Below, piece after piece: positions 23,762 through 35,675 of a stretch of DNA of 37,913 bases. How positions within the stretch are numbered: position 1 is the first letter of the stretch; each line of letters begins with the position of its first letter. Source of the DNA: a virus. The position numbers and the translations under genes were made by a program. The stretch covers positions 1 through 37,913 of IMG/VR virus record IMGVR_UViG_3300049855_000145; one strand, written 5' to 3'. The notes beneath the pieces are model-generated. The model saw only the letters and a list, made by a program, of their open reading frames with translations. It ran no database searches and was not told where the DNA came from.

Positions 23762-25227
23762 TGACGAAACTAATCCTCGGTGGACCGGGGTGCGGTAAAA
23801 CAACAGCGCTTCTCGGTGAGGTGAACCTTGCTTTGGAACGCGGCGTTGAACCATACTCAATCGGTTTTGTGGCCTTTACGCGAAAGGCTGCTGACGAAGC
23901 GCGCGACCGCGCATCGAAGCGGTTCTCAATCGCCGTCGAGGATTTACCACATTTCCGCACGCTGCACTCGATGGCTTTCGCTGTGGGCGGCTTCACGCCT
24001 CAAGAAATGATGACGTCTCGAGACATGAAAGAGTTTGGAGATTGGTGCGGCCTTACGATCAACGTGCCGGATCAGCCTCACGACGAGATCGTTCTCACAG
24101 CGCAAGCCGAACTCGACACCTACGCGTTATCACGCTTGAAGTGCGTCTCACTCGAGGAGCAATGCTATGAGAGCAACATCAACTACGAGCGAACGAAATG
24201 GGTCGCAGACCACTACAACAAGTGGAAGGCTCACAACAAGAAGCACGACTTCACCGACCTCATCGAGCGCTTCGTCGAGCGCAACGACTCGCCTCACTTC
24301 GATCTACTCATTATTGATGAGGCTCAAGACCTTTCGCCGTTGCAGTGGAAGATGGCTGAGATACTTTGTGCTAACGCGGACGAGGTCATTATCGCGGGCG
24401 ATGATGACCAAGCGATCTTCGAGTGGGCTGGAGCTGATGTTTCACACTTTCTCGCCATCCGTGCGGAGACACGGGTCCTACCTAAGTCCTTTCGTCTGCC
24501 TTCCACCATACACGGTCTTGTCCGTCGAATTGCTGACAGGATCGAGCAGCGGTTCACCAAAGAATTCACCTACAACAAAGAAGGTGGGACAGTAGAGCTC
24601 GTTCCGAAGATCAGTCGATTGAACTTCGAAACAGGTTCGTGGCTCGTGCTTGCTAGCACCAACTACCTCTTGAACATTCCGAGAGCGCATCTACGCGAGG
24701 AAGGTTTCCCGTATTACTCAAACGGGCTCTCGTCGACCGACACACCATCGTGCCGCGCACTTATCGCTTGGGAACGGCTTCGAAAGAATCTCGAAATCTC
24801 GTCTGATGACGCAAACCTCGTCTTGTCGCGTCTGCCTGACACTCTGCTCAAGACAAACTCGAAGTTCAAGGGCGGTCAGGTCGTGACCATGAATGACTTC
24901 ACCGCGCTAGGATTGACAACCTATCCTGATTGGATGGATGCACTCTTGATGCCTACGTCCGAGCGTGAGTATTTTCGTGCGATCAAGAAACGTGGTGAGT
25001 CGCTGATCAAGCCACCGCGGATCACGGTCGCAACAATTCACACCGTCAAAGGCGGTGAGGCGGACTCGGTCGCTCTTTACACCGACATGTCCGCTGCTGC
25101 GTATAGATCACTCGTGAAGAATCCTTCAACGGAATCTCGAGTGTTCTACGTTGGCGCTTCACGCGCAAGAGAGAACCTGCATATCATAGACCCACGCTCA
25201 GCAAAAGCTTATAGGATGCCAATATGA
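23761..25227 (+). CDS. UvrD/Rep-like superfamily 1 DNA helicase
   Basis: This 488-residue protein contains motif I GGPGCGKTT (7-15), motif Ia FVAFTRKAADEARDRA, motif II LLIIDEAQDLSPLQW (about 182-196), motif III AGDDDQAIFEWAGAD, and motif IV/Arg finger LPKSFRLPSTIHGLV. Near the end come VATIHTVKGGEADSVALY and FYVGASRARENLHII (motifs V and VI). It is shorter than cellular UvrD, close to phage Dda-like sizes. It likely unwinds DNA at the fork or in recombination, and its gene is coupled to the primase gene. Confidence 0.93.
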   Translation: MTKLILGGPGCGKTTALLGEVNLALERGVEPYSIGFVAFTRKAADEARDRASKRFSIAVEDLPHFRTLHSMAFAVGGFTPQEMMTSRDMKEFGDWCGLTINVPDQPHDEIVLTAQAELDTYALSRLKCVSLEEQCYESNINYERTKWVADHYNKWKAHNKKHDFTDLIERFVERNDSPHFDLLIIDEAQDLSPLQWKMAEILCANADEVIIAGDDDQAIFEWAGADVSHFLAIRAETRVLPKSFRLPSTIHGLVRRIADRIEQRFTKEFTYNKEGGTVELVPKISRLNFETGSWLVLASTNYLLNIPRAHLREEGFPYYSNGLSSTDTPSCRALIAWERLRKNLEISSDDANLVLSRLPDTLLKTNSKFKGGQVVTMNDFTALGLTTYPDWMDALLMPTSEREYFRAIKKRGESLIKPPRITVATIHTVKGGEADSVALYTDMSAAAYRSLVKNPSTESRVFYVGASRARENLHIIDPRSAKAYRMPI

Positions 25228-25772
25228 AACACTGGATGCAAACATCGACCGGCAAGGCGGTAGACCTTGAGAACCCAGACATCTCGTTCGAAGACATTGC
25301 GATCTCGCTCTCGAAGCAGGCGCGGTACGCCGGCCACACGAAAGGCTTTGGCCACTACTCGGTGGCTGAGCATTGTGTACACGTGGCGCGCCATCGGCAG
25401 TTCGAGAAAGGCTATCTAACCAAGCGTCAGCGCTGGAACTTGCTCATGCACGATGCCCGTGAAGGCGTTATGCAGGACATGATCTCGCCATGGAAGGCCC
25501 TCATGCCTGACTTCAAGCAGCACGAGTTGCGTGTTGCAGAAGCAATCGCCAAGAAGTTCGATCTCGACTGGCCTGATCCTGACTACGTCAAGGAACTCGA
25601 CTGGCGCATCCTCGCCGACGAGCGCGACCAGTGCATGGCTACCGCCCCACTCGACTGGGGCATTGGCGACGCGAAGCCACTCGGCATTGTCGTCAAGTGG
25701 TACGACGCGCACTCGGCATACCGTCACTTCACCAACGCAGCAAAGGAGTTCGCACATGTTCCGCTCGACTAA
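25224..25772 (+). CDS. HD-domain phosphohydrolase (YfbR-like 5'-nucleotidase type)
   Basis: This 182-residue protein has the HD pattern: R33 in KQARYAGH, FGHYSVAEHCVHVA (43-56, His at 44 and 50), the HD doublet H76-D77 in LLMHDAREGVMQDMISPWK, and a later acidic helix ELDWRILADERDQ. This matches YfbR-like deoxynucleotide monophosphatases and other phage HD nucleotide hydrolases. It overlaps queD by 17 bases and follows the helicase gene by ATGA. A link to the nucleotide pool or to base modification is an inference from position. Substrate cannot be read from the sequence. Confidence 0.8.
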   Translation: MKHWMQTSTGKAVDLENPDISFEDIAISLSKQARYAGHTKGFGHYSVAEHCVHVARHRQFEKGYLTKRQRWNLLMHDAREGVMQDMISPWKALMPDFKQHELRVAEAIAKKFDLDWPDPDYVKELDWRILADERDQCMATAPLDWGIGDAKPLGIVVKWYDAHSAYRHFTNAAKEFAHVPLD

Positions 25773-26244
25773 GGCCTGGACGCCTGAAGATGGTCTGTCC
25801 TGCACGTTTCGCCAATGGCGCGCCGAATCACACTGCAAGTACCTTCACGGGTACGCGCTTGGCATCGAGTTGACGTTCGAGGCCGAGGACCTGGACATTC
25901 GCAACTGGGTTGTCGACTTTGGCAGCCTGAAGTCGTTCAAGCAGATCCTCACCGACAACCTCGACCACAAGACCCTCGTCGCGTTCGACGATCCGCGCTT
26001 CAAAGACTTCCAAGCGATGCACGATCTCGGCATGATCGACATGGTGCGGGTCGAGGCCACCGGCTGCGAAAAGCTGGCCGAGATGCTCGGCGATATTGCA
26101 GACGGATGGTTGCGGGACGCAGGTTACAAGCCGCGCGTTCGCCTCGTGTCCTGCAAAGTCTGGGAGCACGACAAGAACAGCGCGACATGGTTCCCACCTG
26201 TTAACGATAGTGTGAACTGCGGTTGCAATATCTCGGTCGGCTGA
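25756..26244 (+). CDS. queD: 6-carboxytetrahydropterin synthase-like protein QueD
   Basis: QueD turns dihydroneopterin triphosphate into 6-carboxytetrahydropterin in preQ0 synthesis. The ATG at 25756 follows AAGGAG (25742-25747) and gives 162 residues. Family marks are RAESHCKYLHGYALGI (22-37) with H26, Cys27 and H31, WVVDFGSLKSF (51-61), NLDHKTL (68-74) and SCKVWEHD (132-139). In most QueD proteins the zinc motif reads HGH, but here it is HGY (Y33). That appears in an alphaproteobacterial-type subgroup as I recall it. The call is strengthened by queC, folE, queF and queE nearby. Another T-fold function is possible but less likely. Confidence 0.82.
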   Translation: MFRSTKAWTPEDGLSCTFRQWRAESHCKYLHGYALGIELTFEAEDLDIRNWVVDFGSLKSFKQILTDNLDHKTLVAFDDPRFKDFQAMHDLGMIDMVRVEATGCEKLAEMLGDIADGWLRDAGYKPRVRLVSCKVWEHDKNSATWFPPVNDSVNCGCNISVG

Positions 26245-26285
26245 ACTAACGTTTCACTGTCAACGTCAAACATGGAGTTCTACTC

Positions 26286-26960
26286 GTGCCGCTTTTGATT
26301 GTGAAAGACGTTTCTGACCGCTCGGTTGAAGTGTTCCAGGCGACGCCGGAACAAGTCAAGTCCTTCAACGAAGCCGACTACATGTCAGTCTCGGTAATGG
26401 GCTGGCAGGTCAACAACGCCAACGACCTCGCGATGACTTCGCTCACGCGTGAAGAAATGTGCGCCCTCAACAACCGCATCCATGGCAAGGAGGGTGGCCT
26501 CCTGCCCGGCGAACGTTCGAAGCGCGAACTCGCCCGTCTCGTGTTTGACGGTTTGCCGAAGGCAGCGAAGCCGTATGACTTGACTCCTTCGTCCTCTGAC
26601 AAGCATTACCCGCCGCCGAAGGCCGCCCTTGTAGCGCCTTCCGCTCCCAAGCAATCGACCAAGCGCTTGTCACGTGACGAGGAGTGGGAAACGTCGCCCA
26701 TGAAACTCGTACCGTTGCGCGCTTCTGGCTGCACGGCGAAGCTGGTCGACGCCCTCGCAACGCCCGGCGGCGTCACAATCGACGACTTGAAGAAGATCGT
26801 CCCGAACTGGCAGGAGTCGTCGATCACGTCAGCCCTGCACACCGATGTCCGTGGCAAGGGCGGATATGGCATCATCAAGAAGAAGGTTGAAGGCGTGTTC
26901 CGCTACTCGCTCAACTACCCGGAGGGCGTCACCGCACCGTTGCCGCACATCGGCAAGTGA
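26286..26960 (+). CDS. Hypothetical protein with C-terminal winged-helix (DUF3489-like) domain
   Basis: The GTG start at 26286 has TGGAG eight bases upstream and gives 224 residues. Residues 1-95 form a first domain that I do not recognise (LLIVKDVSDRSVEVFQATPE). A Pro/Ala/Ser linker follows (YPPPKAALVAPSAPKQS). The last 80 residues (KLVDALATPGGVTIDDLKKI, then WQESSITSALHTDVRG and GIIKKKVEGVFRYSL) look like a small winged helix of the DUF3489 kind. A DNA-binding or regulatory role is plausible since it sits between queD and the queC promoter region. This is inference. Confidence 0.65.
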   Translation: MPLLIVKDVSDRSVEVFQATPEQVKSFNEADYMSVSVMGWQVNNANDLAMTSLTREEMCALNNRIHGKEGGLLPGERSKRELARLVFDGLPKAAKPYDLTPSSSDKHYPPPKAALVAPSAPKQSTKRLSRDEEWETSPMKLVPLRASGCTAKLVDALATPGGVTIDDLKKIVPNWQESSITSALHTDVRGKGGYGIIKKKVEGVFRYSLNYPEGVTAPLPHIGK

Positions 26961-27052
26961 TCTGGCGCTTCTTGATGGCTGCGGTTGAGCAAATGTTCGA
27001 TGACGATTATGCTGACCGCGAAGTACAACCACAAGCCACTCAGGAGGATCCA

Positions 27053-27145
27053 ATGGCAAAGAGCAACAAACCTATCGCGAGCAAGAAGACAACAACCAAG
27101 CCGGGCGCTGGCAAGAAGAAGGGCGGCATGGGTAAGAATTGCTGA
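27053..27145 (+). CDS. 30-residue lysine-rich peptide
   Basis: The ATG at 27053 is preceded by AGGAGG at ideal spacing. The product is about one third lysine (SNKPIASKKTTTKPGAGKKK) and ends GGMGKNC. A longer in-frame form of 62 residues could begin at a GTG at 26957 that overlaps the upstream stop as GTGA, adding an N-terminus MIWRFLMAAVEQMFDDDYAD. The stronger ribosome-binding site favours the short form, but both could be made. Its composition suggests nucleic-acid binding. The stop codon lies inside a perfect hairpin. Confidence 0.5.
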   Translation: MAKSNKPIASKKTTTKPGAGKKKGGMGKNC

Positions 27146-27157
27146 CCTAGTCAGCAA
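27139..27157 (+). terminator. Perfect 7-bp hairpin at the end of the lysine-rich gene
   Basis: TTGCTGA (27139-27145) and TCAGCAA (27151-27157) enclose a 5-base loop and include the stop codon. There is no T-run after it, so it may be a weak terminator, an mRNA-end stabiliser or an operator. Confidence 0.4.
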
Positions 27158-27177
27158 CGGAGGTCCGGTCAGCTCAC

Positions 27178-27283
27178 TATACTGTGTCCAGGTGCACCTG
27201 TAGGCGATGAAGTAGCACAGTGAAACGGACTGCCTGAGTGAGACGAGTCGACGCCAATCGGCCGGAGGAGTGCAAGGCTCCTC
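27178..27283 (+). promoter_or_regulatory. Candidate promoter/operator and structured leader of the queC operon
   Basis: TATACT (27178-27183) would be a good -10 box, although no clear -35 is seen. A perfect 12-bp palindrome CAGGTGCACCTG (27189-27200) lies where transcription would start, a natural operator position. A leader of roughly 120 bases runs to queC at 27318. It includes a hairpin of GAGGAG (27265-27270) with CTCCTC (27278-27283). I could not match the leader to a known preQ1 riboswitch consensus. Confidence 0.35.
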
Positions 27284-27317
27284 AATCAACTGTAATGGTG
27301 AACCAGGAGAGAAAACC

Positions 27318-28112
27318 ATGAAGAAAGAAAAGGCCCTCGTCGTCCTTTCGGGCGGCCAGGATTCAACGACATGCCTGTACTGGGCGCTTGCCCAAGGCTA
27401 TGATGTCCAGTGCGTCACGTTCGACTACGGTCAGCGTCACAAGATCGAGATCGACGCCGCCCGACTGATCGCCGAGAAGGCCGGCGTCACGACCGAGGTG
27501 ATCGAACTCGGACCCATCCTCGCTGGCACATCGCCGCTTGTGTCGAGCAATGAACTCGACCAGTACAGTGACATGAACTCCCTGCCCGGCGGCCTCGAGA
27601 AGACCTTCGTCCCATATCGCAACCAGCTCTTCCTCACCGTGGCCGCGAACCGCGCCTATGTCGCAGGCATCAACGTTCTCGTGACTGGCGTCTGCCAGGA
27701 AGACTTCGGCGGCTATCCTGACTGCCGGCGCTCCTTCATCGACTCGCTGCAGCAAGCGTGTACACGTGGTTCCCACAACGGCGTTGACGGTGCGCCTGGG
27801 CCCTTGCGCATCGAGACCCCACTGATGTTCCTCACGAAGGCCGCATCGGTCAAGCTGGCCGCATCGCTGGCGCCTGCGCCGAACGGTTCGACGTGCTGGG
27901 ACGCCCTCGCGTACTCCCACACGGCCTACGATGGCAAGTACCCACCGACCGGCCACGATCACGCAACATTGCTCCGCGCAAAGGGCTTCTTCGAAGCCGG
28001 CCTGCCTGATCCGCTTGTCCTCCGCGCCGTCGAGGAAGGCGTGATGGATGCGCCCGGCACCGCCAACTATGACTTCCTGCGGATCGTCGCGAAGGAGGCC
28101 GCCGCGTCGTGA
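27318..28112 (+). CDS. queC: 7-cyano-7-deazaguanine synthase QueC (variant without the usual zinc cysteines)
   Basis: QueC converts 7-carboxy-7-deazaguanine to preQ0 using ATP and ammonia. The ATG at 27318 follows CAGGAG and gives 264 residues. The PP-loop is SGGQDST (11-17), and further family marks are FDYGQRHKIEI (35-45), FVPYRNQLFL (97-106) and GGYPDCRRSFID (131-142). The C-terminal zinc site usually has four Cys. Here C193 (STCW) is kept, but the 'CG.C..C.LRA' part reads GHDHATLLRAKGF, with H213 and H215. The rest of the C-terminus (GLPDPLVLRA) looks intact, so the enzyme is probably active. It overlaps folE by GTGA. Confidence 0.92.
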   Translation: MKKEKALVVLSGGQDSTTCLYWALAQGYDVQCVTFDYGQRHKIEIDAARLIAEKAGVTTEVIELGPILAGTSPLVSSNELDQYSDMNSLPGGLEKTFVPYRNQLFLTVAANRAYVAGINVLVTGVCQEDFGGYPDCRRSFIDSLQQACTRGSHNGVDGAPGPLRIETPLMFLTKAASVKLAASLAPAPNGSTCWDALAYSHTAYDGKYPPTGHDHATLLRAKGFFEAGLPDPLVLRAVEEGVMDAPGTANYDFLRIVAKEAAAS

Positions 28113-28687
28113 TTTTCTCGGACAAGGAAGCAGTGATTGAGCGTCTCCTGTCAATGACGGGAGACGATGTTACCCGTGAAGGCCTCAAGGAGACTCCAAG
28201 TCGAGTTGTTAAGGCTTTTGAACACTGGTTCGACGGCTACGGACAAGATCCTGCGGCCGTCTTGAAAACCTTCGAAGATGGCGCTGAAGGTTCGGATGAA
28301 ATGGTCCTCGAGACAGACATCCCGATCAACTCAAAGTGCGAGCATCACATGGCTGACATCTTTGGCATCGCCCACATCGCCTACATTCCAAATGGGCGCG
28401 TTGTTGGCTTGTCGAAACTGTCTCGTGTGGTCGACATCTTCGCACACCGCCTACAGGTGCAAGAGCGATTGACAACACAGATCGCTGACGCATTGCAGGA
28501 GCACCTCGCGCCGAAGGGCGTCGGCGTTGTGCTTCAGTGTCGGCACATGTGCATGGAGTCGCGCGGCATCAAGAGGCGTGGCATCGTGACGACCACGAGC
28601 GCCCTTCGTGGGTGCATGAAGAAGGAACCTAGTGCCCGCGCTGAACTCATGAATCTGATCGCTATGACAAGCAAAGGAGATATCTGA
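28109..28687 (+). CDS. folE: GTP cyclohydrolase I FolE
   Basis: FolE opens GTP to dihydroneopterin triphosphate, the first step of both folate and preQ0 synthesis. The 192-residue protein has all family marks: EGLKETPSRVVKAF (24-37), the zinc motif NSKCEHH (C77, H80), GLSKLSRVVDIFAHRLQVQE (100-119) and CRHMCMESRGIKRRG with C148 as third zinc ligand. Length is normal for the short bacterial form. The phage copy would raise supply for DNA modification. It sits between queC and queF with overlapping codons on both sides. Confidence 0.96.
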   Translation: MIFSDKEAVIERLLSMTGDDVTREGLKETPSRVVKAFEHWFDGYGQDPAAVLKTFEDGAEGSDEMVLETDIPINSKCEHHMADIFGIAHIAYIPNGRVVGLSKLSRVVDIFAHRLQVQERLTTQIADALQEHLAPKGVGVVLQCRHMCMESRGIKRRGIVTTTSALRGCMKKEPSARAELMNLIAMTSKGDI

Positions 28688-29205
28688 TGGCATCACTTCC
28701 TCCACACTTCTACTACTCGACCGGCTTCGAAGATCGTCCCATGACGCGCGAGCAGGCCGAGAAGATGTCGCAGACCAAGGACCTCAAGGCTCTTGGCAAG
28801 TCGACCGAGTACAACTTGACGCAAGCCGACTCGAGCATCCTCGAGACGTTCCCGTCCGTCTACAAGAACATCAAGGTCAAGGGCGCCTCTCCCATTGTCA
28901 AGCTGCCGCAGCCTGTCAAGGAGTTCACGTCGCTGTGCCCACTGACCGGCCAGCCGGACTTCGCAGACATCTACGTCGAGTACCAGCCGCGTGACAAGAT
29001 GCTGGAATCGAAGTCGTGGAAGCTGTATCTGTTCTCGTTCCGCACAACGGCCGAGTTCCACGAGGCTTGCGTCACCAAGATCTTCAACGACCTGCACGAC
29101 GCCCTCGACCCGCTGTATCTGCACGTCCAGGGCAACTTCACGCCTCGCGGCGGCATCTCGATTGTCCCGCGCATCGAATGGTGGGCGCCGGACTTCAATG
29201 CCTGA
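28687..29205 (+). CDS. queF: NADPH-dependent preQ0 reductase QueF (type I)
   Basis: QueF reduces the nitrile of preQ0 to the aminomethyl of preQ1. The 172-residue protein fits the short, YkvM-like type. LKALGKSTEYNL and SSILETFPSVYKN are in the N-terminal part, the catalytic Cys is C84 in TSLCPLTGQPDFADI with D91, and the QueF motif ESKSWKLYLFSFR is at 107-119. After it come FHE (124-126) and GNFTPRGGISIVP. A strong AAAGGAG precedes the TGATG start. Its presence means the phage base is likely to be preQ1 or a product of it, not preQ0. Confidence 0.92.
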   Translation: MASLPPHFYYSTGFEDRPMTREQAEKMSQTKDLKALGKSTEYNLTQADSSILETFPSVYKNIKVKGASPIVKLPQPVKEFTSLCPLTGQPDFADIYVEYQPRDKMLESKSWKLYLFSFRTTAEFHEACVTKIFNDLHDALDPLYLHVQGNFTPRGGISIVPRIEWWAPDFNA

Positions 29206-29515
29206 ACACTACGACCCACCGAAGGAAGTCGTCGAGCAAGGTCGGCGACTTCTTTACCATGGCTGGATCGAGATGCCTAACGGCTATGGTCTTTTCATGT
29301 ACACCGACCCATCAGTCAACGCGCTGGAATATTGGTCGGACGAAATCGGCGGCGGTGTTATGGTATGGCAGACAGCTTTAGTCGATCATTCGACACTTGA
29401 GTTCGCCCTCAAGCATTGGAGACAGAATTATGGCCCCTCGCTTCTTCGTCGAACGCAACACGCAATTAAGAGGTTCGGCAAATGGCTCAACCGTTATGGA
29501 CCGTTCAACAGGTGA
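29198..29515 (+). CDS. Hypothetical protein between queF and dpdA
   Basis: The ATG at 29198 lies eight bases inside the end of queF and gives 105 residues. The N-terminal half is aromatic-rich (RLLYHGWIEMPNGYGLFMYT) and looks like a small beta domain. The C-terminal third is basic and helical (HWRQNYGPSLLRRTQHAIKR). No family is recognised. Its place between two base-modification genes makes a helper role possible but unproven. Confidence 0.6.
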   Translation: MPEHYDPPKEVVEQGRRLLYHGWIEMPNGYGLFMYTDPSVNALEYWSDEIGGGVMVWQTALVDHSTLEFALKHWRQNYGPSLLRRTQHAIKRFGKWLNRYGPFNR

Positions 29516-29642
29516 GAAGATTGCCATCTGTCCTGAACATGTGACGGCTGAGATCATCGCATCAATGATGAACCAGCGCGTCCGTTACAGAGAGCCGCTT
29601 CACTCACTCAGCAAGAAAGATGCGGCCTATGCAGGTCACTAA
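29430..29642 (+). CDS. Small hypothetical protein upstream of dpdA
   Basis: The ATG at 29430 with GGAGA seven bases upstream is preferred over an in-frame start at 29397 and gives 70 residues. It overlaps the previous gene by 86 bases, which lowers confidence. The sequence is basic at the start (MAPRFFVERNTQLRGSANGS), then CPEHVTAEIIASMMNQRVRY. No family is recognised. Confidence 0.45.
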   Translation: MAPRFFVERNTQLRGSANGSTVMDRSTGEKIAICPEHVTAEIIASMMNQRVRYREPLHSLSKKDAAYAGH

Positions 29643-29657
29643 GTGCGTGAGGGAACA

Positions 29658-30653
29658 ATGAGATTTTACCATTCTGGTACACCACGCAACGATCAGTACC
29701 AACACTTCGAAGATTCAATTTGTGATCATCGTCTGTTTTCGCTCCACGGTGATTACTACAAGGCAGTCAGCAAGTGGGTAGATGCCCTACCTCCCGACCG
29801 CTCGGTGCGCAAGTACCCACGCACCTTGTTGCTTGACTCTGGCGCGTTCACCGCGTGGAACGCTGGACAACCAACAACGGTCGAGGAGGTCACTCGCACT
29901 TACGATAGCATCCTTAAGCGCGTTGAAGGCAAGTTCGACGAGATCACTTGCGTCAACTTGGACGTCATCCCAGGCGAGCGTGGCCGAACTGCGACGAGTG
30001 ATGAGATCCTCGCTGGTTTTGAACGTTCAGACATCAACTTCGAGATTCTCATCAAGCGTTTCGGCAAGCGCATCCTGCCGGTGTTCCACCAGGATGAAGA
30101 AGTCATTGCTCCTCACCGCCTGAAGATCGTCTGCGATCAAGCCGAGTACATCTGCTTGTCGCCGCGAAACGACGTCCACGAAGCGTCACGTCACGACTGG
30201 TCAATTCAGATGCACCAGCGCGTGTTCGCTATCGACCCGAAGAAACGCACCCACGGCCTCGCGACGACTGGTAACGCGATGATCCGCGATGTGCCTTGGT
30301 TCAGCGTCGATTCCGCGGCCTGGGTTCTGCATGGAGGCATGGCCGGCAAGGTCGACTTCTATGATCCGATGCCTGACGGGACGCCGCGCTACCGTAACTT
30401 CTTCGTCGCCCTCGAAGGCGGCAAACAAGCTATGAAAGATGCTCACCTTATCAATCGTGCGGATCGTGATCATTTCACAAAGATAATCGAGTCCTACGGC
30501 TTCACCTACCAAGAAGCCGAGACGTCAGGCCGTATCCGGTCGCTTATCTGCATGGGCGAGCTGTCGAAGTTCTTCGACGCGGCAAGAGCCGCTCAGACGA
30601 TAAGGATGGCGCGCGGTCAGGAGACCTGGCAAGACACCTTGTTTGACGGTTGA
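29658..30653 (+). CDS. dpdA: DNA guanine transglycosylase DpdA (TGT-like)
   Basis: DpdA exchanges guanine in DNA for a 7-deazaguanine base and is related to tRNA-guanine transglycosylase. With the ATG at 29658 it has 331 residues (an in-frame GTG at 29643 is possible). Motifs along the TIM barrel are LLLDSGAFTAWNAG (57-70, D60), CVNLDVIPG (98-106), ILPVFHQDEE (139-148), YICLSPRNDV (164-173), HGLATTGNAMI (199-209) and PWFSVDSAAWVLHG (213-226, with D218 the likely nucleophile region). The 'DSGAF' and 'PWFSVDS..W' pairs are typical of phage DpdA. The subfamily cannot be told by eye. It follows queC-folE-queF, which supplies its substrate. Confidence 0.88.
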   Translation: MRFYHSGTPRNDQYQHFEDSICDHRLFSLHGDYYKAVSKWVDALPPDRSVRKYPRTLLLDSGAFTAWNAGQPTTVEEVTRTYDSILKRVEGKFDEITCVNLDVIPGERGRTATSDEILAGFERSDINFEILIKRFGKRILPVFHQDEEVIAPHRLKIVCDQAEYICLSPRNDVHEASRHDWSIQMHQRVFAIDPKKRTHGLATTGNAMIRDVPWFSVDSAAWVLHGGMAGKVDFYDPMPDGTPRYRNFFVALEGGKQAMKDAHLINRADRDHFTKIIESYGFTYQEAETSGRIRSLICMGELSKFFDAARAAQTIRMARGQETWQDTLFDG

Positions 30654-30657
30654 GAAT

Positions 30658-30969
30658 ATGGATAGGCAGGTCGTACATTACGGCATGGATCTGCCAGAGA
30701 GTGTTCGAGTCAAGTTCACCTTCTATCTAACGTCAGACGACGCCGGTCAGGTGGTCATCGTGTCGACTCCTGAGTATAGGGTCTTGAAGGACGAACTAAT
30801 CGCCAACTACATCGCCGAGAATGCTCAAGGGTGGATCGGATACTTCAACGCAACCTATGACGTTGACGACTTCAGGAAGATGACTGACAAGGAGATCGTC
30901 GCGTATCATGCAGGTATCCTGCACCCATCCAAGGAGATGACAAGTGAGAACACTGATATTCGACACTGA
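30658..30969 (+). CDS. Hypothetical protein
   Basis: The ATG at 30658, just after dpdA, is preferred to a TTG at 30643 and gives 103 residues. The sequence has strands VKFTFYLTSDDAGQVVIVST and a helical second half (EYRVLKDELIANYIAENAQG). It ends inside the exonuclease gene (26-base overlap). No family is recognised. Confidence 0.6.
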   Translation: MDRQVVHYGMDLPESVRVKFTFYLTSDDAGQVVIVSTPEYRVLKDELIANYIAENAQGWIGYFNATYDVDDFRKMTDKEIVAYHAGILHPSKEMTSENTDIRH

Positions 30970-31537
30970 GACAACTGGCGTGCTCGATTGGAAGAAGCAA
31001 GTCGACGCCCCATCCCAGCCCTACATCGTGCAACTTGCAGCCTTGCAGTATCAGGACCGGAAACTCGTAGGCGCGATCAACCTACTATGCAACCCAATCG
31101 ACGCGACCGGCAACCGCGTCATGATTCCGGACGAGGCTTCAAAGATTCACGGCATCAGCAACGATATGGTCGAGGCGACCGGCCTATCACTGAAAGCCAT
31201 TGCCGCGATCTTCAACTCGCTGATCCGCAACACCGACCGCCTCGTCGCCCACAACATGGATTTCGACTCTCGCATCATGGCCAATACTTACTTGCGTAGT
31301 GGCTTCCCAATCGACTCCTTGCAAGTCCCGCACCGAGTTTGTACTATGAAGGCCAGCGAGAACGTTCTGAAACTGCCAGGCAAGTTCGCCGGCAAGTTCA
31401 AATGGCCGACGCTAGACGAGGCATACCGCCACCTCGTTGACCCTTCTGGGTTCGACGGCGCGCATGACGCTCTGGTAGACGCGAAAGCGTGTGCCGAGGT
31501 CCTTTGGAAGCTCGAGGATGCAGGACACATTCGCTAA
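30944..31537 (+). CDS. DnaQ-like 3'-5' exonuclease
   Basis: This 197-residue DEDDh exonuclease has ExoI LIFDTETTGV (D7, E9), ExoII RLVAHNMDFDSRIM (D108) and ExoIII GAHDALVDAKAC (H174, D179). Between them is the usual IHGISNDMV segment. The GTG start at 30944 has AAGGAG upstream, inside the end of the previous gene. It may proofread for the phage polymerase or degrade host DNA. The polymerase at 33615 already has its own exonuclease domain, so proofreading may be shared. Confidence 0.92.
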   Translation: MRTLIFDTETTGVLDWKKQVDAPSQPYIVQLAALQYQDRKLVGAINLLCNPIDATGNRVMIPDEASKIHGISNDMVEATGLSLKAIAAIFNSLIRNTDRLVAHNMDFDSRIMANTYLRSGFPIDSLQVPHRVCTMKASENVLKLPGKFAGKFKWPTLDEAYRHLVDPSGFDGAHDALVDAKACAEVLWKLEDAGHIR

Positions 31538-32477
31538 GGTCAAGTCAGCGATTGACTTGAGCAACGAGAAGTACTCAATCGTCACAGTCAAGGACGGCAT
31601 GATGTACGGGACCAACGGTCACATGATGGCCGCGGTCCCGACTGACTTGCCCGACTTCAACGTGTCGGCGTTCGCGCTAGACAAGTTCCTGAGCGTGTCG
31701 CCAACGCCAACGGTGAAGATAACCGACAAGAGCCTCGTGCTGACGCAAGGCAAGTCGAAGTCACGTCTGCCTTTGCTTGAGAAAAGCATCGAAGGCGTGC
31801 CACCTGAACCCACGACCTCGGTCGTCGTTGACGAGCAGTTCAAGAACGTCCTCAGGACGCTGCAACCTTTCGCAGGGCTCAGCCACATCTACTTGTGGCA
31901 GTGCGGTGTCTCCTTTGGTGGCGGCAAGTCACGCGCGACCAACGGGTCGATTGTCGCTGAGTACGACTACGACCTGGGCGGCGAGTTCCTGTTGAATTTC
32001 CGCGCAGTCGACTACGTGCTGAAGCGTAAGGAGCGCGTGACCAAGATCGACGTGACCGACAATGCGCTCGTGCTTCGCTTCGAAGATGGCTCATGGCTGC
32101 AAATCCAGCGCATTGCGAAGGAGAACCTCGAGAACATCCCGAAGATCATGGCGAACATGTACCGGCCGCCGCAGACCGAGATCACGGCTGAGCTACGGCA
32201 AGCTTTTGCTCAGGCCTTCTTGTCGAAAGCAGAAGTCATCGAGTTGTCGCGCGATGGCGTGAAAGCTGAGGTGTCCGGCGGCGACGTGAACGTTGAAGGC
32301 GAGACACTTCTCGAAACTGAGTCGGTATGGACTGCAAAAGCGATTAACATGGTGTTTGAGAACGCGACTCACCTCGACATTGACACCACAAACGAAAGCC
32401 CGTCCTCGTTCAAAGGTCCGCACATCCGCGGCCTCATTCTCAGGAGAAAGAAAGCATGCGACCGTCAACAGTCCTGA
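31518..32477 (+). CDS. Putative sliding-clamp-like DNA polymerase processivity factor
   Basis: The ATG at 31518 (rather than an in-frame GTG-type start at 31491) gives 319 residues. The protein shows a repeated internal pattern like the domains of the bacterial beta clamp. Domain 1 has MMYGTNGHMMAAVP (28-41), then TVKITDKSLVLTQGKSK. Domain 2 has RATNGSIVAEYDYDLGG (139-155), then VTKIDVTDNALVLRFEDG. A third part (VWTAKAINMVFENATHLDI, then HIRGLILRR) matches the clamp ending. '.TNG...A' stands where clamps have '.TDG..LA'. It is somewhat short for a three-domain clamp. Position between exonuclease and polymerase supports the idea. No clamp loader is in the window. Confidence 0.55.
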   Translation: MQDTFAKVKSAIDLSNEKYSIVTVKDGMMYGTNGHMMAAVPTDLPDFNVSAFALDKFLSVSPTPTVKITDKSLVLTQGKSKSRLPLLEKSIEGVPPEPTTSVVVDEQFKNVLRTLQPFAGLSHIYLWQCGVSFGGGKSRATNGSIVAEYDYDLGGEFLLNFRAVDYVLKRKERVTKIDVTDNALVLRFEDGSWLQIQRIAKENLENIPKIMANMYRPPQTEITAELRQAFAQAFLSKAEVIELSRDGVKAEVSGGDVNVEGETLLETESVWTAKAINMVFENATHLDIDTTNESPSSFKGPHIRGLILRRKKACDRQQS

Positions 32478-32878
32478 AGTCATCCGCCTCGCAGATGGCG
32501 GCGATCATGTCGCCGGCCTTCGTCAAGGCACGCCTCGAAGAGAAGGACTCGATGCTCGATCCGAGCGTCCTCGAGACCCTTCATCAGCTCAAGCGGGCAC
32601 ACTTTCCAAACCCGCCGGCGCGTCCTGGCAACATTCACCACACCGGCCGCGTCTACGAGGCTGCAACGCCTATCGTCGCCTCGCGGCATGAACCGCACAT
32701 CGTCAACGGCAAGCAGCACATGCAGCAGACTTATGTTCTGCGCGATCCCGAGAACCCAGACTCGCTGAAGAAGCTGCTGAAGGTTCCGGTCATGCTGCAC
32801 CGCGGCATGGACCGCAAGGTTCTGAAGAAGGCGCTCTACAACGACCGCCGTCTCGCGAAAGGACGCTGGGTGAACTGA
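32456..32878 (+). CDS. Hypothetical basic protein upstream of queE
   Basis: The ATG at 32456 with AGGAG nine bases upstream gives 140 residues. The protein is basic, with ETLHQLKRAHFPNPPARPG in the middle and LLKVPVMLHRGMDRKVLKKA near the end. No family is recognised. It overlaps the clamp-like gene by 22 bases and shares one base with queE (TGATG), so it is translated with both. Confidence 0.65.
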   Translation: MRPSTVLKSSASQMAAIMSPAFVKARLEEKDSMLDPSVLETLHQLKRAHFPNPPARPGNIHHTGRVYEAATPIVASRHEPHIVNGKQHMQQTYVLRDPENPDSLKKLLKVPVMLHRGMDRKVLKKALYNDRRLAKGRWVN

Positions 32879-33612
32879 TGTTCGGACAGAATCGCCCTCG
32901 CGGCAACAATGACGTGAAGGAAGGCCAACTGCAAGTTCACGAGATCTTCTACACACTCCAGGGCGAGGGGCCGTTCTCCGGCTACCCCGCCGTCTTCGTT
33001 CGGCTGTCAGGCTGCAATCTTCGTTGCTGGTTCTGCGACACGAAGTGGGATGATGACAATGACCCTTACTGCTATCCCGAGCAAATCGTCTCGAACGTGA
33101 AGGCCATACAAGGCCGAGCGCGCCTGGTTGTCATCACGGGCGGCGAGCCCCTTCGCCAAGACTTGACCGAACTGTGCGCCTTGCTGAACGCAGCCGGCTT
33201 CATGGTTCAAATCGAAACTGCCGGCACGTACTGGCAGGACGTTTGCGTGATGGGAAAACACGTGTACACGGTCGTCTCGCCGAAGAATGGTCGCGTCCAT
33301 CCGAAGTTCAAGAACCTTCACACTTTCGTAGGACCCACGGGCGTCCCGCTCGCGGTCTGGAAGTACGTGGTGAAGGCCGGCGAAGTCGCAGATGACGGAT
33401 TGCCCATCGGCAACTTCCAGCGCTTGAAGAATGGTGAGATCGGTGGCGGCGCCCTCGAGCGTCCACCTGAAGGTGCTCGCGTCTATCTCCAGCCATGCGA
33501 CGAGTACGACGAGGAGAAGAACAAGCTCAACTATGCGGCTGTCGCGAAGTCATGCCTCGAGCATGGCTACATCGGCGGCGTGCAGGTTCACAAGCACCTG
33601 AGCCTTGAGTAG
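32878..33612 (+). CDS. queE: 7-carboxy-7-deazaguanine synthase QueE (radical SAM)
   Basis: QueE rearranges 6-carboxytetrahydropterin to 7-carboxy-7-deazaguanine using S-adenosylmethionine and a 4Fe-4S cluster. The 244-residue protein has VHEIFYTLQGEGPFSGYPAV (20-39), the radical SAM motif CNLRCWFC (C46, C50, C53) followed by DTKWDDD, and VVITGGEPLRQDL. The C-terminus ends GVQVHKHLSLE, the usual QueE 'r.hk.lgv' type. It is separated from queC-folE-queF by about 4 kb of replication genes, yet it supplies the missing step of that pathway. Confidence 0.95.
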   Translation: MFGQNRPRGNNDVKEGQLQVHEIFYTLQGEGPFSGYPAVFVRLSGCNLRCWFCDTKWDDDNDPYCYPEQIVSNVKAIQGRARLVVITGGEPLRQDLTELCALLNAAGFMVQIETAGTYWQDVCVMGKHVYTVVSPKNGRVHPKFKNLHTFVGPTGVPLAVWKYVVKAGEVADDGLPIGNFQRLKNGEIGGGALERPPEGARVYLQPCDEYDEEKNKLNYAAVAKSCLEHGYIGGVQVHKHLSLE

Positions 33613-33614
33613 TA

Positions 33615-35675
33615 ATGGCAACATTCGACAACATCGAGAACCTATGGGCTCCTGACGATGACCGCATTATGCGGCAGCGTCCTGAACGTGAAGGCAAGGC
33701 TTCATTCAATCCGAATGTTCCGGTCAAGGATGGTTACGAGCCGCCGAAGCGTTACGACTCGATCCTGAGCCTGCCTCGTATCGGCCTCGACATTGAAACG
33801 TGGGATCCTGATCTCACTACACTTGGCCCTGGCGCTCGGCGCCCGAAAGGTTTCATTGTCGGCGTTGGCGTCGGTCCTCGTTCAAACATCAAGTATTATC
33901 CGATCAAGCACGGTCGAACCGGGCGCAACATCGACTTCGAATTCTGGGACAGATTCAAATCTGAAGTAGCCGAGTTCGATGGTGAACTCGTAGGCGCAAA
34001 TCTTCAATACGATCTTGACTGGCTCGGTGCACAGCGTCAGGACAAGCCGTCGATCATCTTTCACCGCGCGAAGATCCGGGACGTGCAGATCGCCGAGCCG
34101 CTTCTCAACGAGAACAGATTCACATACAAACTGAACGCCCTTGCCAAAGATTACCTCGGTGAGGCAAAAGCCGATCTCGCTACCGCCGGTTACGGTAAAG
34201 GCTACATCGAGAACATGCACCTCGTTGACCCAGGACACGCTGACTACTATTGTGTCCAGGATATTGCGCTCGCGCTCGACATCTACGCCCTTCAGGTTCC
34301 CGAACTTGAGCGCCAAGGCTTGTGGGATTTGTTTGTCCTCGAGTCGAAGCTGATCCCACTGCTGTTGCGGATGCGCTCGAATGGCGTCCGCGTCGATATT
34401 GACCGCGTTGAAGCCGCAATCGAAAACTTGACAACACGCCAGCGTGACTCGTCGAAGATCCTCGAGATGCAAGCTGGTATGCCTATCGACATATGGTCGT
34501 CAGAGTCGATCAAGCATGCTTTCGACAAGAATGATATTGGCTACCCAACGACTGCTGCTGGTCGCCCGTCCTTCACGAAAGATTGGTTGAACGCTCAGAC
34601 GCACCCAATCGCAAAGCTCATTGTCGAGCAGCGCGAACTCGACAAGATTAAGGGTACGTTCCTTCAGAATTACATGATGAACTCGCACATTGACGGGCGC
34701 ATCTTTTGCCAGTTCAATCAGCTCAAGTCGGATGAGGGTGGTACAGTATCAGGCCGCTTCTCGTCGTCCTACCCGAACCTGCAGAACATTCCAGCGAGGC
34801 ATCCTGAGCTTGGACCGTTGTGCCGCGGCCTGTTTATTCCTGAGGAAGGAATGCTGTGGGGCTGCACCGACTGGTCGCAGATCGAGTTTCGTTTCCTCGT
34901 TCACTATGCAGTCAGCACGTTCTACGACTACGACAAGCACGACCATGAAGCGATCAAGTCAGCGCTTGCTGCCGCAGAAGCGTACCGTACCGATCCATCG
35001 ACCGACTTCCACAAGATCGCTGCCGCAATCGCAGGCACAGACCGCAAGCAAGCCAAGAACATCAACTTCGGCGTTGTCTATGGCATGGGCGTCCCGAAGA
35101 TGGCGGCCTCCCTCGGCAAGTCGATCAGTGAAGCCGAACCAATCCTGAATGAGTTCCACACTCGCATGCCATTCCTTCGAAAGCTCTACGACCGCGTAGG
35201 CAAGCAAGCGAACGATGTGGGTTTCATCAAAACGATCCTTGGGCGTAGGCGCCGCTTTCATGAGTACGAAGTCGTTGCGTGGCCAAAGCAGCGCGGTGGA
35301 AAGCCACCCAAGTTTGTCGGTAACGAGGAAGCGTGCTACCAGTGGCTCGCAGAGAAAGAAGCTGAAGGTTTGTCGCCGGGCGGAAGCTTGCGGCGCGCCT
35401 ACACCCACAAGGCGCTGAACTCACTCCTGCAGGGATCAGCCGCTGACCTCATGAAGAAGTCCATGGTCGACATGTGGGAGTCAGGTATCTTCGAGACGAT
35501 CATCCCGCACCTGACTGTCCATGACGAACTCGACGTGTCTGTGCCACAGACTCCTGAAGGTGCGGAAGCCTTCGAGGAACTCAAGCACATGATGGCTATT
35601 GCAATCCCGCTCAAGGTCCCGGTGTTCGCGTCGGCATCGACCGGCGGTAACTGGGATGAGGCGAAAGGCGACTAA
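33615..35675 (+). CDS. Family A DNA polymerase with 3'-5' exonuclease domain
   Basis: This 686-residue replicative polymerase has no 5'-3' exonuclease domain. Proofreading domain: ExoI GLDIETWD (D59, E61), ExoII GANLQYDLDWL (D133/D135), ExoIII YYCVQDIALALD (Y212, D216). Polymerase domain: TVSGRFSSSYPNLQNIP, motif A GCTDWSQIEFRFLVH, motif B RKQAKNINFGVVYG, and motif C LTVHDELDVS. In motif B a Phe stands where E. coli Pol I has F762. All catalytic residues appear intact. It must copy or tolerate 7-deazaguanine-containing templates if the phage DNA is modified. Confidence 0.96.
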   Translation: MATFDNIENLWAPDDDRIMRQRPEREGKASFNPNVPVKDGYEPPKRYDSILSLPRIGLDIETWDPDLTTLGPGARRPKGFIVGVGVGPRSNIKYYPIKHGRTGRNIDFEFWDRFKSEVAEFDGELVGANLQYDLDWLGAQRQDKPSIIFHRAKIRDVQIAEPLLNENRFTYKLNALAKDYLGEAKADLATAGYGKGYIENMHLVDPGHADYYCVQDIALALDIYALQVPELERQGLWDLFVLESKLIPLLLRMRSNGVRVDIDRVEAAIENLTTRQRDSSKILEMQAGMPIDIWSSESIKHAFDKNDIGYPTTAAGRPSFTKDWLNAQTHPIAKLIVEQRELDKIKGTFLQNYMMNSHIDGRIFCQFNQLKSDEGGTVSGRFSSSYPNLQNIPARHPELGPLCRGLFIPEEGMLWGCTDWSQIEFRFLVHYAVSTFYDYDKHDHEAIKSALAAAEAYRTDPSTDFHKIAAAIAGTDRKQAKNINFGVVYGMGVPKMAASLGKSISEAEPILNEFHTRMPFLRKLYDRVGKQANDVGFIKTILGRRRRFHEYEVVAWPKQRGGKPPKFVGNEEACYQWLAEKEAEGLSPGGSLRRAYTHKALNSLLQGSAADLMKKSMVDMWESGIFETIIPHLTVHDELDVSVPQTPEGAEAFEELKHMMAIAIPLKVPVFASASTGGNWDEAKGD

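What the first reader, a model, noticed from the sequence alone, without database searches (positions are those of the whole stretch)
25756..33612. Complete GTP-to-preQ1 pathway plus DpdA: predicted 7-aminomethyl-7-deazaguanine in phage DNA
queD, queC, folE, queF, dpdA and queE are all present with intact core motifs. Known phage systems of this kind carry preQ0, archaeosine, preQ1 or derivatives in DNA. QueF next to DpdA points to dPreQ1 or something made from it. No candidate archaeosine-type amidotransferase was seen.
Basis: partly seen in the sequence, partly recalled or inferred. Interest (0 to 1): 0.75.

Follow-up and report, generated by a model that had tools for sequence, protein, structure and literature searches.

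The report
Phage preQ1-in-DNA operon with zinc-less QueC
This phage fragment carries a complete set of genes to build the modified base preQ1 and swap it for guanine in DNA, a known kind of phage protection against host enzymes, but one of its enzymes (QueC) belongs to a phage lineage that has lost the zinc-binding site thought to be essential.

Summary
A 37.9-kb IMG/VR phage fragment, syntenic with Nanhaivirus R5C, Pan1 and R26L, encodes QueD, QueC, FolE, QueF, DpdA and QueE between its helicase and DNA polymerase genes. QueF has the nitrile-reductase signature and passes the preQ1-synthase model; DpdA is DpdA1-type with a TGT fold. dPreQ1 in virion DNA is the best prediction. As a system this is a known kind (Streptococcus phage Dp-1; same operon already published for R5C, Pan1 and R26L).

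One claim is wrong: the core motifs are not all intact. QueC keeps every ATP/substrate motif but has lost all four zinc cysteines; QueD has lost two of three zinc histidines. The QueC loss most likely arose once, in a large phage clade nested among canonical phage QueCs. It is probably functional: it co-occurs with QueF in 48 loci, and Brackiella oedipodis has such a QueC as its only one, alongside QueD, QueE, QueF, TGT and QueA. No phage whose bases I could find measured has it.

On the DpdA tree, QueF presence changes far less often than QueC or QueD type, with a loop switch (GG[ML]V to SP[RA]ND) in the probable 7-substituent pocket. This suggests DpdA inserts free preQ1.

The parts
25224..25772 (+). 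HD-domain deoxyribonucleoside 5'-monophosphate phosphatase, directly upstream of queD; a gene at the same place in Nanhaivirus is called phosphoglycolate phosphatase
   Evidence: phrog_318 4.3e-48; synteny
25756..26244 (+). queD (6-carboxytetrahydropterin synthase), variant metal site RQWRAxSHCxxxHGY: catalytic Cys kept, 2 of 3 canonical zinc His replaced
   Evidence: PTPS 1.3e-17; alignment; start ATG with AGGAG
26286..26960 (+). unknown gene between queD and queC (weak C-terminal DUF3489 resemblance)
   Evidence: PF11994 E 6.7e-4, below cut-off
27318..28112 (+). queC, zinc-motif-less variant: SGGQDS, YGQRHKIE, VPYRN, YPDC, Lys and Tyr kept; C(x)8CxxCxxC replaced by [18 protein letters not shown]
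   Evidence: PF06508 2.2e-50; alignments and clade; AlphaFold2 pLDDT 94, fold of 3BL5
28109..28687 (+). folE (GTP cyclohydrolase I), zinc ligands CEHH...CRHMC kept
   Evidence: PF01227 5.8e-69; alignment
28687..29205 (+). queF, single-domain NADPH-dependent preQ0 reductase (preQ1 synthase)
   Evidence: TIGR03139 119.9 bits vs cut-off 86.9; QueF structures E 2e-34
29204..29515 (+). unknown small ORF between queF and dpdA
   Evidence: no significant family match
29397..29642 (+). unknown small ORF overlapping the previous one, just before dpdA
   Evidence: no significant family match
29658..30653 (+). dpdA (DpdA1-type DNA guanine transglycosylase, 331 aa), pocket loop SPRND; lacks two inserts of about 50 aa present in R5C, Pan1 and R26L
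   Evidence: phrog_887 1.1e-38; TGT fold; DpdA1 not DpdA2
30944..31537 (+). DnaQ-like exonuclease (replisome context)
   Evidence: PF00929 3.8e-14; phrog_192
31491..32477 (+). sliding clamp (DNA polymerase processivity factor)
   Evidence: phrog_947 1.1e-21
32878..33612 (+). [quoted passage not shown]
   Evidence: phrog_2076 9.3e-47; 6nhl 1.2e-19
33615..35675 (+). family A DNA polymerase
   Evidence: PF00476 1.8e-58

Best explanation
A phage-encoded preQ1-to-DNA system. FolE, QueD and QueE make 7-carboxy-7-deazaguanine from GTP; a zinc-motif-less but active QueC turns it into preQ0; QueF reduces preQ0 to preQ1; DpdA exchanges guanine in newly made DNA for the free base preQ1, giving dPreQ1 (possibly decorated further), which shields the phage genome from host restriction enzymes. 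Shown here: gene content, folds, signatures, synteny, the shared loss of the QueC zinc site, and the DpdA-QueF coupling. Inferred: all activities, the order reduction-before-insertion, the base in the virion, and the protective role.
For: All six genes on one strand within the replication block; QueF reductase signature and cut-off passed; DpdA with TGT fold, invariant Asp60/Asp102/Asp218, and in the same clade as Dp-1 DpdA; Dp-1 DNA holds dPreQ1 (PMC6884629). Variant QueC keeps every catalytic motif, invariant across 57-60 aligned sequences, occurs with QueF in 48 fetched loci, 44 of them with DpdA, and is the only PF06508 gene in Brackiella oedipodis beside QueD, QueE, QueF, TGT and QueA, so it most likely makes preQ0. 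QueF presence needs 3 changes on the DpdA tree, against 7 for QueC type and 18 for QueD type on the same 73 rows; 20 of 20 loci sampled by a DpdA motif hold QueF.
Against: No modified base has been measured in this virus or, in the papers I could read, in any phage with variant QueC. Sequence alone has mis-sorted QueF and QueF-L before (PMC6884629). Nine QueF+ DpdA rows, in three places of the tree, lack the SPxND loop (L016/L087/L089; L315/L324/L351/L353/L358; L317). Most QueF+ rows of the tree were collected by a QueF motif. QueG was not found in Brackiella.
Confidence: 0.72

Rival explanations
1. Same end product, other order: DpdA inserts preQ0 and QueF reduces dPreQ0 in DNA.
For: Raised as open in PMC6884629; the related archaeal QueF-L acts on preQ0 already in tRNA; nine QueF+ DpdA rows keep a loop other than SPxND.
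Against: DpdA has diverged together with QueF: few changes on the tree and a block of discriminating residues at 168-172 and 145, which would not be needed if QueF worked after insertion. QueF is single-domain with the usual free-base signature.
Confidence: 0.15
2. An auxiliary metabolic operon that boosts queuosine in host tRNA, as proposed for Pan1.
For: The authors of Pan1 read the same operon so (PMC9837993).
Against: The transglycosylase is DpdA1-type, not TGT: a DpdA profile gives E 0.32 with a real TGT; no QueA or QueG was seen among the window proteins searched; the operon sits among polymerase, clamp and exonuclease genes.
Confidence: 0.05
3. dPreQ1 is only an intermediate and one of the small unknown genes converts it to a derivative (for example methylated or formylated).
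For: Such derivatives exist in phages (recalled from Cui et al. 2023, PMC10516641, not held here); unknown genes lie between queD and queC and between queF and dpdA.
Against: No methyl- or formyltransferase match in the searched unknown ORFs.
Confidence: 0.15
4. The variant QueC stops at the amide (ADG) or is dead, so the DNA would carry dADG or a host-derived base.
For: All four zinc cysteines absent; zinc is reported as required for QueC (PMC13329287).
Against: Invariant catalytic motifs in 57-60 relatives, QueF beside it in 48 loci, sole QueC of Brackiella with a queuosine pathway, and its core is nested among canonical phage QueCs near CAjan, a dPreQ0 phage.
Confidence: 0.1

Closest known systems
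Nanhaivirus phages vB_DshS-R5C, Pan1, vB_DshS_R26L
   Same: Same operon and gene order from primase to DNA polymerase, same variant QueC and QueD, QueF and DpdA
   Different: Window proteins are about 36% (DpdA), 48-52% (QueF) and 66-67% (QueC) identical to theirs; DpdA is about 100 aa shorter; the exodeoxyribonuclease-5 gene after dpdA is absent from this place
Streptococcus phage Dp-1 (dPreQ1 measured, about 1.7% of G; PMC6884629)
   Same: FolE-QueD-QueE-QueC-QueF-DpdA set; DpdA in the same QueF+ clade
   Different: Dp-1 QueC and QueD have canonical zinc sites; Dp-1 also has a QueT transporter gene
Seuratvirus CAjan and Nonagvirus 9g (dPreQ0 / archaeosine)
   Same: DpdA1-type transglycosylase and preQ0 pathway beside clamp and polymerase genes
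   Different: No QueF; DpdA loop GG[ML]V; QueC canonical (CAjan) or Gat-QueC (9g)
Canonical QueC (PF06508 cluster 1; PMC13329287)
   Same: SGGxDS, YxQxHxxE, VPxRN, YPDC, Lys165 and Tyr189 equivalents all present
   Different: C(x)8CxxCxxC zinc motif absent

Membership tests
Phage 7-deazaguanine DNA modification, DpdA + preQ0 genes + QueF (Hutinet 2019 group 1) | folE, queD, queE, queC, dpdA and an amidotransferase or QueF/QueF-L in one genome | tested here: met
Phage 7-deazaguanine DNA modification, DpdA + preQ0 genes + QueF (Hutinet 2019 group 1) | 7-deazaguanine in virion DNA | not testable with these tools
   needs mass spectrometry
QueF nitrile reductase | Cys/Asp pair in SLCPxTGQPD and NADPH motif E(S/L)K(S/A)hK(L/Y)(Y/F/W) | tested here: met
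   FTSLCPLTGQPDF and ESKSWKLYL; TIGR03139 above cut-off
QueF-L archaeosine synthase | closest to QueF-L and lacking the NADPH motif | tested here: not met
   QueF structures 2e-34 vs QueF-L 4e-4; motif present
DpdA1 | homology to 9g/CAjan/Dp-1 DpdA, TGT fold, catalytic Asp residues, conserved His | tested here: met
   phmmer 1e-8 to 1e-11 to Dp-1, 9g and CAjan; TGT fold; invariant D60, D102, D218, H199
DpdA2 (Vibrio phage nt-1) | homology to nt-1 DpdA2 | tested here: not met
   E 1.2
DpdA3 and DpdA4 | homology to those subfamilies | not tested
   paper defining them (PMC10516641) not held
Canonical QueC | SGGxDS, YxQxHxxE, VPxRN, YPDC and the zinc-region Tyr | tested here: met
Canonical QueC | C(x)8CxxCxxC zinc motif | tested here: not met
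   four Cys replaced by A, T, D, T in ungapped register with L332/L349
Canonical QueD | three zinc His (H...HGH) and catalytic Cys | tested here: not met
   catalytic Cys and the first HGH His kept, the other two His replaced; NCBIfam cut-off not reached

The most novel reading that the evidence does not exclude
A large phage lineage has evolved a zinc-independent preQ0 synthase (QueC), and in its QueF-bearing members DpdA has re-tooled its 7-substituent pocket (GG[ML]V to SP[RA]ND) so that it inserts ready-made preQ1 into DNA, settling the order of reduction and insertion.
Probability: 0.4. Interest if true: 0.65.

Novelty: new variant of a known kind. Interest (0 to 1): 0.5.

Why it matters
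The operon itself is known, but it challenges the view that QueC needs its zinc site: a phage clade with all other catalytic residues invariant has lost the site and yet sits in a pathway that needs the nitrile. It also offers a concrete handle on an open question from 2019, whether phage DpdA inserts preQ1 directly or QueF reduces preQ0 in DNA: one loop swap between DpdA of 9g/CAjan and of R5C/Dp-1 would test it.

Tried and rejected
Single-protein locus searches with window QueF and DpdA found nothing, so motif patterns were used. A replacement metal site in QueC (invariant His200/Asp204/Asp213/His214 in model numbering, i.e. SHT, YDG and DHA) was considered; Iggy, MMDA13 and HD01 change the third of these, and L373 keeps only the first His, so zinc-free is favoured but not shown. 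Joint inheritance of the QueC and QueD variants was rejected: variant QueC occurs with either QueD type. A tRNA-type TGT role for DpdA was rejected. Rfam found no RNA element such as a preQ1 riboswitch in 25000-34000. hhalign against three TGTs aligned only residues 53-149, and weakly, so the placing of loop 168-172 rests on strand order in the model, not on a direct alignment.

Full report
What the window is. The window is a whole IMG/VR virus record of 37,913 bases, linear, probably about half a genome if it is as long as its relatives. It has no close nucleotide relative among isolate phages, but the gene order primase, helicase, phosphatase, queD, unknown gene(s), queC, folE, queF, small gene(s), dpdA, exonuclease, clamp, small gene, queE, DNA polymerase A is that of Nanhaivirus phages R5C, Pan1 and R26L. 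Tail genes fill much of the first half.

Check of the observation. All six genes are real, with strong family matches and mostly good ribosome-binding sites; starts that fit both homologues and Shine-Dalgarno sites are queD 25756, queC 27318, folE 28109 (GTG), queF 28687, dpdA 29658, queE 32878. The statement that core motifs are intact holds for FolE, QueF, QueE and DpdA but not for QueC and QueD.

QueC. Every motif that Libby et al. 2026 (PMC13329287) found essential or conserved is present except one: SGGQDS, YGQRHKIE, VPYRN, YPDC, the Lys and the Tyr that equals E. coli Y189 are there; the four zinc cysteines are missing. Against related canonical phage QueCs (L332: SHTCYEGQFPPCGKCPACVLRAKGF) the window reads [25 protein letters not shown] without a gap, so Cys to Ala, Thr, Asp, Thr. 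Of 95 thinned variant tails 93 have no cysteine at all. A degenerate DNA pattern for DGxYPPxGxDHA found 94 IMG/VR stretches, and the variant is in isolates such as Me-ZS1, Baskent_P4_1, RHEph04, HD01, MMDA13 and Iggy. Part of the conserved tail (the pattern itself) is selected for by that search; the SHT, the Tyr and the LRxxxF stretch are not part of it. A tree of the catalytic core alone, without the tail, puts the variants in one clade (100/99) inside canonical phage QueCs near CAjan, with one row (L103) that again carries a canonical tail. The AlphaFold2 model is confident throughout (pLDDT 94) and has the fold of B. subtilis QueC 3BL5, TM-score 0.84 by target length.

Is it active? Three lines say yes. 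The catalytic residues are invariant across the alignments. Variant QueC sits with QueF, which needs the nitrile preQ0, in 48 fetched loci, 44 of them also with DpdA. And the scan of bacterial genomes gave six matches, of which Brackiella oedipodis DSM 13743 carries the gene in an ordinary chromosomal setting near phosphate-transport and oxidoreductase genes, as its only PF06508 gene, with canonical QueD, QueE and QueF plus TGT and QueA elsewhere in the genome. It was the only one of 251 genomes of its family with the motif, so it looks like a phage gene that replaced the resident one. QueG was not found there, so its pathway may end at epoxyqueuosine or use another enzyme. The phages whose bases were measured (PMC6884629; CP220 as cited in PMC8306585) have canonical zinc motifs where I could look: CAjan, nt-1, HVTV-1, Dp-1, 9g, CP220 and a Rosebush-type phage, MasterPo, standing in for Rosebush itself, which was not in the collection.

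QueD. The window and its relatives read RQWRAxSHCxxxHGY in place of H...C...HGH. The type is common in viruses, often without QueC in the fetched stretch, and mixes freely with either QueC type. I treat it as a second, independent metal-site change; its effect is unknown.

QueF. Single-domain, 172 aa, with the Cys and Asp of the nitrile reductase and the NADPH motif; it is far closer to QueF than to QueF-L structures and above the preQ1-synthase cut-off. Dp-1 and HVTV-1, with QueF of then disputed type, carry dPreQ1.

DpdA. It has no Pfam or NCBIfam match, but PHROG 887, a TGT fold and phmmer similarity to Dp-1, 9g and CAjan DpdA; nt-1 DpdA2 is not matched. On a tree of 118 DpdAs one block of 65 rows (window, R5C, Dp-1) is all QueF+ and another of 32 rows (9g, CAjan, Iggy) all QueF-; QueF presence needs 4 changes against 35 in shuffles. 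Genes in one operon travel together, so I used QueC and QueD type as controls: on the 73 rows with all labels QueF needs 3 changes, QueC type 7, QueD type 18. Sampling matters, because many QueF+ rows were collected by a QueF motif. In loci collected by the QueC motif alone, after thinning, the SP loop went with QueF in 6 of 6 and the GG loop lacked QueF in 36 of 39, and 20 of 20 loci collected by a DpdA motif had QueF. The positions that best separate the groups are 168-172 (SP[RA]ND vs GG[ML]V[GP]) and 145 (Q vs Y/F). By strand order these correspond to the TGT stretch after Gln203 that contacts the 7-substituent (established knowledge of Zymomonas TGT; the correspondence is inferred, not aligned directly). 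Smaller QueF+ lineages, nine rows, do not have the SP loop, so the coupling is strong but not absolute.

Conclusion. The most likely product is dPreQ1, made by reduction of free preQ0 before insertion, as protection against restriction. The system is a known kind and this operon has been described in relatives; what is new, as far as the papers I could search show, is the zinc-less QueC clade and the DpdA-QueF coupling. The 2023 paper that defines DpdA3, DpdA4 and the methyl and formyl derivatives (PMC10516641) was not available; what I say of it is from memory, and it could contain measurements on phages with variant QueC, such as Iggy.

Noticed in passing
L120:834-2882: A viral QueC gene is interrupted by what looks like an intein just before the YPDC motif.
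   Followed up: no
L101-L218: Most viral contigs with the RQWRAxSHC...HGY QueD type carry QueE and/or FolE but no QueC in the fetched stretch; their deazaguanine end product is unclear.
   Followed up: no
L241:8514-9347: Brackiella oedipodis carries a phage-type zinc-less QueC as its only QueC, apparently replacing the resident gene.
   Followed up: yes
L103:5079-5780: A QueC nested in the variant clade carries a canonical CYAGEVPPCGKCHSC tail, as if the zinc tail had been regained, perhaps by recombination.
   Followed up: partly
window:29658-30653: DpdA lacks two inserts of about 50 aa each found in R5C, Pan1 and R26L DpdA, and the exodeoxyribonuclease-5 gene that lies shortly after dpdA there is absent from this place.
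   Followed up: partly
window:25224-25772: A deoxyribonucleoside monophosphate phosphatase gene overlaps queD; a phosphatase-like gene keeps this place across Nanhaivirus. A link to the modification is possible but untested.
   Followed up: no
L313:4068-4877, L342:4069-4875: QueF+ loci with an even more diverged QueC tail (KRTNTSYKPI...SASSIERIEAF) that has neither the zinc cysteines nor the YDGxYPP motif.
   Followed up: no
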